From NCBI GenBank assembly GCA_002840845.1, contig PHCS01000003.1:1-64000 (forward strand): a stretch of 64,000 bases of DNA. Direction: 5' to 3'. The notes below the pieces were generated by a model. It ran no database searches and was not told the DNA's origin. It saw only the letters and a program-made list of their open reading frames with translations. Source of the stretch: Betaproteobacteria bacterium HGW-Betaproteobacteria-14. GTDB lineage: Bacteria; Pseudomonadota; Gammaproteobacteria; Burkholderiales; Rhodocyclaceae. Numbering within the stretch: position 1 is the stretch's first letter; each line of letters opens with the position of its first letter. Below, piece after piece: positions 51,786-59,487 of the stretch. The translations under genes were made by a program, and so were the position numbers.

Positions 51786-53081
51786 ATGTTCATGGAAAGT
51801 GAAATCATGTTGCTGGGCCTGGTTGCGCTCGGCGGTGGGCTTACGGTTGCGCTGATCGGACTCGCCTATCTGCTGCTGCGCCTGCGCGAGGCGGAAACAC
51901 GCCTCCACGAGAAGGAAGACCAGCACCAGGGCATCCTCGACCGCCTGCAGGAGAACGAATACCGCCTGCGCACCATCATCGAGTCCGAACCGGAGTGCGT
52001 AAAGCTGCAGGCCGCCGACGGCACGGTGCTGGAGATCAACCCGGCGGGGCTCAGGCTGGTGGACGCCGGTCGCCCGGAGGACATCATCGGCAGGAAGATC
52101 TATGAAGTCGTCGCGCCGGAATACCAGGCCATCTACCGGGAAAACATGCGGCGCGTCTTCGCCGGCGAATCGGTCGTCTATGAATTCAGGTCGACCACCC
52201 TCAAGGGCCGGACCTGCTGGATGGAGACGCATGCCGTGCCCCTGCGCGATGCACGCGGCGAAGTCTATGCGCTGCTCGGCATCACGCGCGATACCACCGA
52301 GCACAAGTGGGCCGAGGAACAGGGCCGGCGCCACCAGACGGAACTGGCGCGGGTGGCGCGCCTGTCGACCATGGGCGAAATGGCCACCGGCCTGGCCCAC
52401 GAGCTCAACCAGCCGCTCGCGGCGATCGCCAATTTCGCGCGCGGCTGCATCCGCCGGCTGCGCACCGGCGAGGTGGTTCCCGCCGAGCTGATCGAACCGC
52501 TCGAGGAGGTGTGCGAGCAGGCGGAGCGCGCGGGGGAAATCATGCGCCACGTGCGCGACTTCGTGCGCAAGAGCGAGCCCAGGATGACCGCGGTCGACAT
52601 CAACCAGGTCGTGCGCAGCGTGGTCAAGTTCACCGAACACGAGACGCGCCAGCACGAAACGGTCGTCACGCTTCAGCTGGCGCCGCAACAGCCCCGCGTG
52701 TGGGCCGACTCCATCATGATCGAGCAGGTGGTCTGCAACCTGGTACGCAACGCCGTCGAGGCGATGGCCGAGACGCGTTCTCAGCGCCGGGAAATCCTGA
52801 TCCGCACCGTACCGCACGACGGAGACATCGTGGAGATCGAGGTCGTCGATACCGGGCCCGGCATCGACGAAACGGTTATCGACAATGTGTTCGACCAGTT
52901 CTTCACCACCAAGACGGAAGGCGTCGGCATGGGGCTGTCCATCAGCCGCTCGATCGTCGAGTCGCACGGCGGCAGCATCCGCGCCGAGTCGCGCGCCGGC
53001 GGCGCCACCTTCCGTTTCACCTTGCAGGCCATACCGGTCAAGCTGAGCCGCGATGAGCGACGCTACAGTCTTCATAGTTGA
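51786..53081 (+). CDS. PAS-domain sensor histidine kinase (FixL-like)
   Basis: PAS segment; H-box MATGLAHELNQPLAAIANFARG; N/G boxes; overlaps the RR gene by 29 nt. Confidence 0.9.
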   Translation: MFMESEIMLLGLVALGGGLTVALIGLAYLLLRLREAETRLHEKEDQHQGILDRLQENEYRLRTIIESEPECVKLQAADGTVLEINPAGLRLVDAGRPEDIIGRKIYEVVAPEYQAIYRENMRRVFAGESVVYEFRSTTLKGRTCWMETHAVPLRDARGEVYALLGITRDTTEHKWAEEQGRRHQTELARVARLSTMGEMATGLAHELNQPLAAIANFARGCIRRLRTGEVVPAELIEPLEEVCEQAERAGEIMRHVRDFVRKSEPRMTAVDINQVVRSVVKFTEHETRQHETVVTLQLAPQQPRVWADSIMIEQVVCNLVRNAVEAMAETRSQRREILIRTVPHDGDIVEIEVVDTGPGIDETVIDNVFDQFFTTKTEGVGMGLSISRSIVESHGGSIRAESRAGGATFRFTLQAIPVKLSRDERRYSLHS

Positions 53082-53670
53082 CGACGACCAGGCGGTGGCC
53101 CGCAGCCTGCGCTGGCTGATCGAGACGGTGCGGCTGAAGGTGGAGACCTTCGCCTCGGCCCAGGCCTTCCTCGACGGCTACGATGCATCGAAACCGGGCT
53201 GCCTGGTGCTCGACGTGCGCATGCCGGGCATGAGCGGCCTGGAACTGCAGGAGCGTCTGGCGGCGCGACGCGCCTATCACGTGCCGATCATCTTCATCAC
53301 CGGGCACGGCGATGTGCAGATGGCGGTGCGCGCGGTGCAGGCGGGCGCTTACGATTTCGTCGAGAAGCCGTTCAACGACCAGGACCTGCTCGACCGCATC
53401 CAGCGCGCCATCGTCTTCGATGCCGAGCAGCGCGGCAAGGAAGTTCAACGCGCGCAGCTGCGCGCGCTGTTCGCCAGCCTCACGCCGCGCGAACGCGAGG
53501 TGCTGGATCGGGTGGTGGAGGGGCTGTCGAACAAGGCCATCGCCAATACGCTGGGGCTGAGCGCGAAAACCGTGGAAGTGCACCGCGCCAAGGTGATGGA
53601 GAAGATGCAAGCGCGCTCGCTCTCCGACCTGGTGAAGATGGCCATGCAGAACTCGTCTGTGACGTCCTGA
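53053..53670 (+). CDS. Response regulator, FixJ/NarL type (REC + LuxR HTH)
   Basis: VFIVDDDQAVARSLRWLIE; LVLDVRMPGMSGLE; LTPREREVLDRVVEGLSNKAIANTLGLSAKTVEVHRAKVMEKM. Confidence 0.93.
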   Translation: MSDATVFIVDDDQAVARSLRWLIETVRLKVETFASAQAFLDGYDASKPGCLVLDVRMPGMSGLELQERLAARRAYHVPIIFITGHGDVQMAVRAVQAGAYDFVEKPFNDQDLLDRIQRAIVFDAEQRGKEVQRAQLRALFASLTPREREVLDRVVEGLSNKAIANTLGLSAKTVEVHRAKVMEKMQARSLSDLVKMAMQNSSVTS

Positions 53671-57354: not shown

Positions 57355-57921
57355 ATGGCCATGTTGGACTATGTGTATACCGGCTGGGGCGCGTTCTGGG
57401 TGACCATGTTCATGTTCGTCCCCTTTGCCCTGATGGCATACTGGGTCATCCGCAGGAAAAGCCTGGTCGATACAGGACCCACCCAGTTGCAGCCTAGCGA
57501 GTTTGCGCCCATAGAGGGCGTCTGGATGACGTTTGCGTTCATCTTCTTCGTGGTTGCCAACCTGGCCAGCCTGAAATATATCCCGTGGGCAGCCGCCTCC
57601 GGCACGACCAACGGCGAGCCCGAGATCCAAGTCGACTTCACGGCGAAGTCCTGGGCCTACGACATCTCCAACCGCCAGATCGAGGCCGGCAAGCCGGTAC
57701 GCTTCTCCGGCCGGTCGAGCGACACCCAGCACGGCTTTGCCGTCTATCACCCGGACGGCAGGGTGCTGTTCACCATGCTGATGATGCCGGGCACCACCAA
57801 GCCCACGTCGGTCGTCTATACCTTCAAGGACCCGGGCAAGTATGCGGTGCGCTGCCTCGAGTACTGCGGCGTCGCCCACCACAGGATGCAGGACGAACTG
57901 ACCGTCGTCAAAGCCAACTGA
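57355..57921 (+). CDS. CuA-containing subunit II of a heme-copper oxidoreductase (NorS-like candidate)
   Basis: Two N-terminal TMs; CuA ligands DTQHGF and CLEYCGVAHHRM (CxxxCxxxHxxM); start 57355 after aggagg. Confidence 0.85.
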   Translation: MAMLDYVYTGWGAFWVTMFMFVPFALMAYWVIRRKSLVDTGPTQLQPSEFAPIEGVWMTFAFIFFVVANLASLKYIPWAAASGTTNGEPEIQVDFTAKSWAYDISNRQIEAGKPVRFSGRSSDTQHGFAVYHPDGRVLFTMLMMPGTTKPTSVVYTFKDPGKYAVRCLEYCGVAHHRMQDELTVVKAN

Positions 57922-57957
57922 GGCAACTGAGCGCACCCAAGCGGAGGAGAACCTGAA

Positions 57958-59487
57958 ATGAGCATAGCCACCACCATCGTCAAGAGCACGCCGGTCTTCG
58001 GCAAGATGTTCGCGGTCGACAAGAGCACCGGCCTGGAGGAGATCAACGCCTGGCCGGCGCTGATGATCATGAGTTCCTTCGTCTGGCTCGTCGTGGCCGG
58101 CCTGCTGGGCCTGGTCATGCCGGCGACGCAGATCTTCGATCTCAGCTCGGACCACTTCTACACCACGCTGACGCTGCACGGCGCGGCGCTGACATTCCCC
58201 TTCTCGTTCCAGCTCATGATGGGCGTCGGCCTGCACCGCTCCGGCGGCTGCGTCGGCAAGGCCATCACCGGCTGGCTGCCGGCGCTGGCCTGGCTGTCGA
58301 TGAACCTGGGCGCCGCCATCCTCACCGTCGCCGTCCTCATGGGCCTCAAGGTCAGCGTGGTGGTGATGTTCCCGCTGCCCCTGGTCGGCGCGCAGATGGG
58401 CGTCTGGAGCATGGAATCGGTGATCGTCGGCTTCACCGGCATCTACCTGGTGCTGGCCTGCATGATCCTCTGGTACCCGCTGCTGGTGCTCAAGATGATG
58501 TTCTTCGGCAAGAAGCGCGCGGAACTCATCCTTTCCGAGCGCTCGCTCAACGAGCCGGGCATGCTGGGCATGCTGCTCGCCGCCGCGACGCTGCTGCTGA
58601 CGGGCCTGCCGCTGGTGGTGGTCGGCACGACGCTGGTGCTGGCGCTCTACAAGGTCATCCCGATGTCGCTCGCCGCCTGGGCGGCCGATCCGGTGGTGTT
58701 CCAATACACGTTCTATCTCTTCGCCCACAACCTGATGGAGGCGATGGCCCTGATGGTGGCGAGCGCGATGTATGCCACGCTGCCGCTCTACCTGGCCGAC
58801 GGCTCGCGCAAGCTCTACAGCGAGAAGCTGGCCAACCTGGCATTGTGGGTCCTGCTGGTAACGTCGGTCACCTCGGGCCTGCATCATTTCATCACCTTCT
58901 ACCCGAACCAGCCGGCGGCACTGTCCTACTGGGGCAACATCATGAGCTGGGGTACCGGCATGGGCGCGGCGATCAGCATCTTCACCATCCTGGCCACCAT
59001 CTGGCAGCACGGCCTGAAGGCCGAGCCCGGCATCATCGCCGTGCTGGTCGGCTGGGCGCTCTACATCCTCGACGGCGCCAGCGCCATCGTCACCTCCAAC
59101 ATCGCCTGGACCTACCAGCTGCATGGCACCATGTGGCAGAGCGGCCACTTCATGACCGTCGTCCTTTCCATGTCCATGATGTGGATGGGCGTGCTGTATC
59201 ACCACTATCCGGTGCTGACGGGCCGCAAGCTCGACCCGGCGCTGGGCTACCTGTATGTGAAGATGATTTCCGTCGGCAGCCTGGGCGCGGCCATCGTCAT
59301 GCTGGCGGGCGGCGCGGCCGGCATGCCGCGGCGCTTCGCCGACTGGCACCCGGAAGGCTGGATGCTCTACGGCAACCTGATCCTGGCCTTCGGCCTGATC
59401 CTCGGCGCCTCGTTTGCCGTATATTTCTACAATCTGATGAAGTCGCGCGAGATCTCCGCGCCCATGGGCGAACTGGCGAGAGCCTGA
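57958..59487 (+). CDS. Heme-copper oxidoreductase subunit I with NOR-like active-site motifs (NorY/sNOR-type candidate)
   Basis: Helix II LTLHGAALTF (H74); FAHNLMEAM (H257-x3-E261, no catalytic Tyr); SGLHHF (H309/H310); LHGTMWQSGHFM (H397, M399). Confidence 0.8.
   Translation: MSIATTIVKSTPVFGKMFAVDKSTGLEEINAWPALMIMSSFVWLVVAGLLGLVMPATQIFDLSSDHFYTTLTLHGAALTFPFSFQLMMGVGLHRSGGCVGKAITGWLPALAWLSMNLGAAILTVAVLMGLKVSVVVMFPLPLVGAQMGVWSMESVIVGFTGIYLVLACMILWYPLLVLKMMFFGKKRAELILSERSLNEPGMLGMLLAAATLLLTGLPLVVVGTTLVLALYKVIPMSLAAWAADPVVFQYTFYLFAHNLMEAMALMVASAMYATLPLYLADGSRKLYSEKLANLALWVLLVTSVTSGLHHFITFYPNQPAALSYWGNIMSWGTGMGAAISIFTILATIWQHGLKAEPGIIAVLVGWALYILDGASAIVTSNIAWTYQLHGTMWQSGHFMTVVLSMSMMWMGVLYHHYPVLTGRKLDPALGYLYVKMISVGSLGAAIVMLAGGAAGMPRRFADWHPEGWMLYGNLILAFGLILGASFAVYFYNLMKSREISAPMGELARA

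What the first reader, a model, noticed from the sequence alone, without database searches (positions are those of the whole stretch)
57355..59487. CuA-linked heme-copper enzyme with NOR-like active site (H-x3-E, no catalytic Tyr) and Met in place of the second helix-X His
Sequence: subunit I has FAHNLMEAM (H257, E261), where oxidases of the HPEVY type carry Tyr at H+4; SGLHHF (H309/H310); and LHGTMWQSGHFM, which aligns with NOR HGTxxxxAHxH as HGT-x4-G-H-x-M, so M399 takes the place of the low-spin-heme His. Subunit II keeps a full CuA set (DTQHGF, CLEYCGVAHHRM). Established: cytochrome c NORs have H-x3-E near FeB and HxH in helix X; CuA-bearing sNOR (NorSY) enzymes are reported from ammonia oxidisers. 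Inference: this is a cytochrome-c- or cupredoxin-fed NO reductase of the sNOR class or a related lineage, possibly with His/Met low-spin heme ligation. I cannot tell by eye whether Met is conserved in the family.
Basis: partly seen in the sequence, partly recalled or inferred. Interest (0 to 1): 0.82.

Follow-up and report, generated by a model that had tools for sequence, protein, structure and literature searches.

The report
Unnamed copper-fed nitric oxide reductase-like enzyme
A respiratory enzyme built like a cytochrome oxidase carries, in all ~40 relatives found, the active-site residues of a nitric oxide reductase plus an unusual methionine where a heme normally has a histidine, and it sits in bacteria that were published as denitrifiers without a nitric oxide reductase.

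Summary
Window 57958-59487 encodes a full 509-residue heme-copper subunit I and 57355-57921 a CuA subunit II. I found orthologues in about 40 genomes: Ca. Desulfobacillus, Sulfuritalea and other Burkholderiales-type betaproteobacteria, and some alphaproteobacteria down to 61% identity. In all of them that cover the site, E261 and M399 are invariant, and the six CuA ligands are invariant too. The operon is conserved: kinase/regulator, heme O synthase, II, I, Cu-ATPase.
The family is a tight clade on a long stem. It is sister to sNOR (92/85; 99/93 without long branches) but outside it, and far from cNOR. Its cNOR-like H3E site therefore looks convergent. No Tyr is conserved at the A/B- or C-type catalytic positions.
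Carriers usually have nirS and nosZ but almost never cNOR. Ca. D. denitrificans was published as lacking NO reductase. Caution: 27 of 31 carriers also have an eNOR, which could explain the cNOR gap by itself.
Best reading: an undescribed CuA-fed NO-reductase lineage with a probable His/Met low-spin heme. Function and ligation are inferred. The published nNOR class could not be compared because the defining paper is not held.

The parts
57355..57921 (+). Subunit II: membrane-anchored CuA cupredoxin, 186-188 aa (ATG at 57355 or 57361)
   Evidence: ORF; CoxB-like (E 2e-11); upstream of subunit I in 29 of 29 loci with enough sequence
57730..57732 (+). CuA ligand His (DTQHGF), residue 124 of subunit II
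   Evidence: invariant in 45 of 45 rows, including 3 sNOR subunits II
57853..57888 (+). CuA loop C-x-E-x-C-x3-H-x2-M (residues 165-176)
   Evidence: all five ligand positions invariant in 45 of 45 rows
57958..59487 (+). Subunit I: heme-copper (COX1-fold) catalytic subunit, 509 aa
   Evidence: PF00115 E 1e-36; AlphaFold pLDDT 77.6, pTM 0.83; best PDB fold match A-type oxidase, TM 0.78
58177..58179 (+). H74, helix II His, expected low-spin heme ligand
   Evidence: 41 of 41 rows; aligns with the LHG/THG His of all references
58726..58740 (+). H257-N-L-M-E261: metal-B His and the Glu that replaces the cross-linked Tyr (H-x3-E)
   Evidence: H and E in 40 of 40 rows; references have Y (A, B), N (sNOR), Q (eNOR), E (cNOR, qNOR) there
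58882..58887 (+). H309-H310, the other two metal-B His
   Evidence: 40 of 40 rows
59146..59154 (+). H397-x-M399: high-spin heme His and the Met at the low-spin heme ligand position
   Evidence: 38 of 38 rows, plus L106 and L107
56265..57176 (-). Heme O synthase (CtaB/CyoE), divergent from subunit II
   Evidence: TIGR01473 E 2e-93; heme-O-synthase-like (UbiA) neighbour in 20 of 24 loci with enough upstream sequence; also downstream of subunit I in L044 (TIGR01473) and a UbiA-family gene in L042
59573..61957 (+). Heavy-metal (Cu-type) P1B ATPase
   Evidence: TIGR01525 over cut-off, E 2.6e-130; TIGR01511 E 1e-117 but just under its cut-off; adjacent in 20 of 20 loci with enough downstream sequence and in alphaproteobacterial L117
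51786..53081 (+). PAS-domain sensor histidine kinase
   Evidence: Pfam; 18 of 18 loci with enough upstream sequence
53053..53670 (+). FixJ/NarL-type response regulator
   Evidence: Response_reg + GerE; 18 of 18 loci

Best explanation
It is an unnamed lineage of CuA-fed nitric oxide reductase in the heme-copper superfamily. It shares ancestry with sNOR and evolved a cNOR-like H3E metal-B site independently. Proposed working: periplasmic cytochrome c or cupredoxin reduces CuA in subunit II. Electrons pass to a low-spin heme held by H74 and M399, then to a high-spin heme (H397) and a metal B bound by H257, H309, H310 and E261, where two NO become N2O. The adjacent heme O synthase suggests at least one heme O, and the Cu-ATPase supplies copper at least for CuA. 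Shown: residues, conservation, phylogenetic position, operon, genome context. Inferred: NO as substrate, Met ligation, heme type, identity of metal B (Fe or Cu).
For: H-x3-E invariant across the family. No Tyr at the A/B site (helix VI H+4 is E) and none at the C-type site (HH+3 is the invariant T313). Known NORs replace this Tyr with E, N, Q or D (PMC8756737 Table A4). Subunits I and II are both closest to sNOR among the families tested. CuA is complete. Of 26 nirS-bearing carriers, 2 have cNOR (one of them a divergent copy, 38% identical); in the Rhodocyclaceae background it is 21 of 26 (Fisher p 1e-7). Two nirS+ nosZ+ carrier MAGs, G514 and G532, show no cNOR, qNOR or eNOR. Ca. D. denitrificans is published as nirS+ nosZ+ without nor (PMC8402940), and its close relative UTPRO2 is not listed among the nor-expressing genomes (PMC5460018).
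Against: 27 of 31 carriers also encode an eNOR. In background nirS+ genomes eNOR and cNOR also tend to exclude each other, so the missing cNOR may be due to eNOR alone. The Fisher tests treat related genomes as independent. No activity, expression or structure data exist. Sisterhood to sNOR is moderate in the full tree (92/85), and grouping with A-type oxidases is not rejected (AU p 0.13). sNOR has itself been argued to be an O2 reductase in Nitrosomonas (PMC6967387).
Confidence: 0.55

Rival explanations
1. A terminal O2 reductase, perhaps high-affinity, that works without the cross-linked Tyr, as has been argued for sNOR in Nitrosomonas europaea.
For: Overall fold and HMM closest to A-type oxidases; CuA, Cu-ATPase and heme O synthase are oxidase-style accessories; sNOR was induced under O2 limitation (PMC6967387); A-type grouping not rejected.
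Against: No conserved Tyr at either known catalytic position; the K-channel Lys position is Ser/Thr and the HPEVY Glu is absent. The carriers checked already have A-type and cbb3 oxidases.
Confidence: 0.22
2. It is the published nNOR class, or another class already defined by Murali et al. 2024, and so is known though uncharacterised.
For: Three further B-like NOR families (sNOR, gNOR, nNOR) are reported (PMC11388526), and this family sits next to sNOR.
Against: The defining paper is not held, so this is untested. The residues listed for gNOR (D), sNOR (N), eNOR (Q) and CuANOR (N) do not fit. No NCBIfam model passes its cut-off.
Confidence: 0.2
3. M399 is not a heme ligand: the low-spin heme is five-coordinate, absent, or bound by another residue, and Met only fills the space.
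For: Helix X is about one residue shorter than in relatives and aligners disagree on the gap position; the model is unsure just before helix X (residues 382-395 below pLDDT 50).
Against: Met is invariant at exactly H397+2, and H74 and the heme-propionate Arg pair (MPRR) are invariant.
Confidence: 0.3
4. An enzyme for another substrate (NO dismutation, or a sulfur- or hydroxylamine-linked reaction) rather than respiratory NO reduction.
For: A methanethiol oxidase cluster lies beside the operon in six loci; several carriers are sulfur-oxidiser-type bacteria.
Against: The MtoX link is patchy, and the H3E site matches NO chemistry in cNOR.
Confidence: 0.08

Closest known systems
sNOR (NorSY; e.g. 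Ruegeria pomeroyi L058, Thermomicrobium roseum L059)
   Same: CuA subunit II with HGF...CLEYCG..HH.M, two-subunit layout, nearest clade for both subunits
   Different: sNOR has H-x3-N and HNTxWVP(G/A)HFH; this family has H-x3-E and HGTMWQxGHxM and lies outside the sNOR clade
cNOR/qNOR (NorCB, NorZ)
   Same: H-x3-E plus two His, i.e. the FeB ligand set; HGT start of the helix X motif
   Different: CuA cupredoxin instead of NorC or a quinol domain; no second Glu at H+8; HxM instead of HxH; cNOR groups with C-type oxidases (AU p 0.048 against joining)
eNOR (own-genome copy L003; Thermus L061)
   Same: CuA-fed; heme O synthase next to it in L060 and L119
   Different: Gln at the Tyr position; B-type affiliation; grouping with this family rejected (AU p 0.015)
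A-type cytochrome c oxidases (CtaD)
   Same: Fold (TM 0.78), heme-propionate MPRR, CuA subunit II
   Different: Tyr to Glu, His to Met at the low-spin position, no K-channel Lys, 16-19% identity

Membership tests
sNOR | Asn at the active-site Tyr position (H-x3-N) | tested here: not met
   Glu in 40 of 40 family rows; Asn in 8 of 8 sNOR references
sNOR | Falls inside the sNOR clade | tested here: not met
   sNOR 100/100 and this family 100/100, sister to each other at 92/85, 99/93 without long branches
sNOR | CuA cupredoxin subunit II | tested here: met
cNOR | H3E metal-B ligand set | tested here: met
cNOR | Cytochrome c subunit NorC | tested here: not met
   Partner is a CuA protein in all loci
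cNOR | Phylogenetic placement with cNOR/qNOR | tested here: not met
   (AU p 0.048); profile comparison not significant (prob 12%)
eNOR | Gln at the Tyr position | tested here: not met
gNOR | Asp at the active-site position | tested here: not met
   Glu here; Asp per PMC8756737 Table A4; no gNOR sequence was at hand for a tree
bNOR (CuANOR) | Asn at the active-site position | tested here: not met
   Glu here; Asn per PMC8756737 Table A4; no bNOR sequence was at hand for a tree
nNOR | Class definition in Murali et al. 2024 | not testable with these tools
   Paper not held; the other papers name nNOR but give no residues
A/B-type O2 reductase | Cross-linked Tyr on helix VI (H+4) | tested here: not met
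C-type O2 reductase | Catalytic Tyr on helix VII (HH+3) | tested here: not met
   Invariant T313 at that place
Any HCO-type NO reductase | NO to N2O activity | not testable with these tools
   Needs biochemistry

The most novel reading that the evidence does not exclude
A previously undescribed NO-reductase lineage in which a cNOR-like H3E site evolved a second time on an oxidase/sNOR scaffold, together with the first family-wide His/Met low-spin heme in the heme-copper superfamily. It would be one of two overlooked NORs (with eNOR) in anammox-reactor bacteria classed as lacking NO reductase.
Probability: 0.4. Interest if true: 0.85.

Novelty: new variant of a known kind. Interest (0 to 1): 0.7.

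Why it matters
If it reduces NO, genomes counted as NO-releasing 'imperfect denitrifiers' would be able to make their own N2O, which changes N2O and NO budgets for anammox reactors and groundwater. For bioenergetics, it would show that the Glu that marks NO reduction can evolve repeatedly from Tyr. It would also be a natural test of what a Met ligand does to the potential and electron flow of the low-spin heme, whose helix-X His is usually treated as fixed.

Tried and rejected
Filing it as cNOR because of H-x3-E: rejected by subunit II type, helix X and tree. Filing it as sNOR: active-site residue and clade do not fit. Met as a one-genome oddity or sequencing error: rejected by 40 members. 'This must be the missing NOR of Ca. 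D. denitrificans': weakened, because all 16 genomes of the genus also carry an eNOR. Viral contigs: no relatives. Plasmids: only distant oxidases. A PDB search with the own-genome HCO-like L005 gave nothing. No coordinates came with the model, so ligand geometry was not measured. The lipoamide-dehydrogenase and OsmC genes beside the operon are kept in only about half of the loci and are not counted as parts.

Full report
Observation. The two ORFs are intact. Subunit I (57958-59487, 509 aa) is a COX1-family protein (E 1e-36) but scores far below every oxidase cut-off of NCBIfam. Subunit II (57355-57921) has a complete CuA site.

Family. The genome's genus (16 genomes held) includes Ca. Desulfobacillus denitrificans: L027 is AP021857.1, 81% identical. 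Ten of the 16 carry the gene. A scan of 85,462 species gave 32 loci: Rhodocyclaceae, Sulfuritalea and Burkholderiaceae/Burkholderiales MAGs, one Hyphomicrobiales (63%) and one Magnetovibrio (61%). A later search of 386 alphaproteobacterial genomes gave two more. The gene is rare: in 399 genomes drawn evenly from the phylum only the own genome had it. In the aligned set H74, H257, E261, H309, H310, H397 and M399 never vary where the sequence covers them, nor in the two late members. Selection is purifying (dN/dS 0.16-0.25).

What the residues mean. Profile alignment to solved structures finds only A-type oxidases (best caa3 2yev, E 4.5e-12) and places E261 on the cross-linked Tyr and M399 on the low-spin heme His. 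The AlphaFold model (pLDDT 77.6, pTM 0.83) matches A-type oxidases best (TM 0.78); ba3 and cbb3 are at 0.64-0.68, and cNOR is not in the listed top 50. In a joint alignment with A, B, C, sNOR, eNOR, cNOR and qNOR the H+4 residue is Tyr in A and B, Asn in sNOR, Gln in eNOR and Glu in cNOR, qNOR and this family. These assignments agree with the published table (PMC8756737). The C-type Tyr place (HH+3) holds an invariant Thr, so neither known catalytic Tyr is there. The cNOR Glu at H+8 is absent. The K-channel Lys place is Ser or Thr. At H397+2 every reference has His except the Thermus eNORs, which have Lys; this family always has Met. Helix X is about one residue shorter than in relatives and the gap position is ambiguous, so Met ligation is likely but not shown.

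Phylogeny. The family is one clade (100/100) with a stem of 1.83 changes per site. It is sister to sNOR (92/85), or 99/93 when the long cNOR, qNOR and C branches are left out. Joining it with B or eNOR is rejected (AU p 0.014-0.015), with cNOR/qNOR marginally rejected (0.048), with A not rejected (0.13). Profile comparison ranks sNOR (E 5.6e-24) over A (1e-20), B (4e-17), eNOR (6e-8) and cNOR (prob 12%). The subunit II tree also places it with sNOR rather than eNOR/B, with weak inner support. The H3E site shared with cNOR is therefore best read as convergence.

Operon. The same neighbours recur: PAS kinase and FixJ/NarL-type regulator in 18 of 18 loci, subunit II in 29 of 29, Cu-type ATPase in 20 of 20, heme-O-synthase-like gene in 20 of 24, each counted among loci with enough flank. 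In L044 a heme O synthase and in L042 a UbiA-family prenyltransferase follow subunit I. This points to a heme-O, copper-containing enzyme under its own two-component control. What the kinase senses is unknown.

Genome context. In 31 carriers nirS was found in 26 and nosZ in 21. Of the 26 nirS+ carriers 2 have cNOR at the threshold used (G510, and G533 with a divergent 38%-identical copy), against 21 of 26 nirS+ Rhodocyclaceae without the gene (p 1e-7). Some carriers have a weaker NorB-like hit in a long ORF, consistent with qNOR. The important confounder is eNOR: 27 of 31 carriers and all 16 genomes of the genus have one. In the own genome it lies on the same contig as nirS. eNOR alone could therefore account for the missing cNOR. 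Two carrier MAGs (G514, G532) have nirS and nosZ and no cNOR, qNOR or eNOR, but absence in a MAG is weak. Genomes are related, so the p-values overstate independence.

Literature. Ca. D. denitrificans was described as lacking NO reductase while nosZ was strongly expressed (PMC8402940). Its relative UTPRO2 is reported to express nir and nosZ genes and is not among the genomes listed as expressing norBC or norZ (PMC5460018). Neither paper's retrieved passages mention eNOR or this enzyme as candidates. Papers cite sNOR, gNOR and nNOR as further proposed NORs (PMC11388526); the defining paper is not held, so identity with nNOR is open.

Verdict. A real, conserved, apparently unnamed heme-copper lineage with the anatomy of a CuA-fed NO reductase. 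NO reduction is the most likely function (about 0.55). O2 reduction is the main rival. His/Met ligation is the most likely reading of the invariant Met.

Noticed in passing
L061 2983-4668, L120 783-2465, L121 783-2468: Thermus thermophilus plasmid eNORs have Lys (HNTLAVVGHFK) at the low-spin-heme position of helix X, while other eNORs here keep His: a second, independent loss of that ligand.
   Followed up: partly
own genome G000:C67:21239-22921 (L003) and C67:16817-18031 (L005): An eNOR (H-x3-Q) and a COX1-like protein without the HH pair lie on the same contig as nirS (C67:4042-5220). All 16 genomes of the genus have the eNOR, so the published statement that Ca. D. denitrificans lacks NO reductase is doubtful on this ground too.
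   Followed up: partly
L026, L028, L029, L032, L042, L050: A methanethiol oxidase (MtoX) gene, usually with a SCO1-type gene, lies near the operon in six loci.
   Followed up: no
L021: A 95%-identical copy sits in a MAG labelled Chloroflexi bacterium CFX10, probably a mis-binned Desulfobacillus contig.
   Followed up: no
L060, L119: eNOR clusters carry heme O synthase next to subunit I, as this family does, which hints at heme O in several non-canonical NORs.
   Followed up: no
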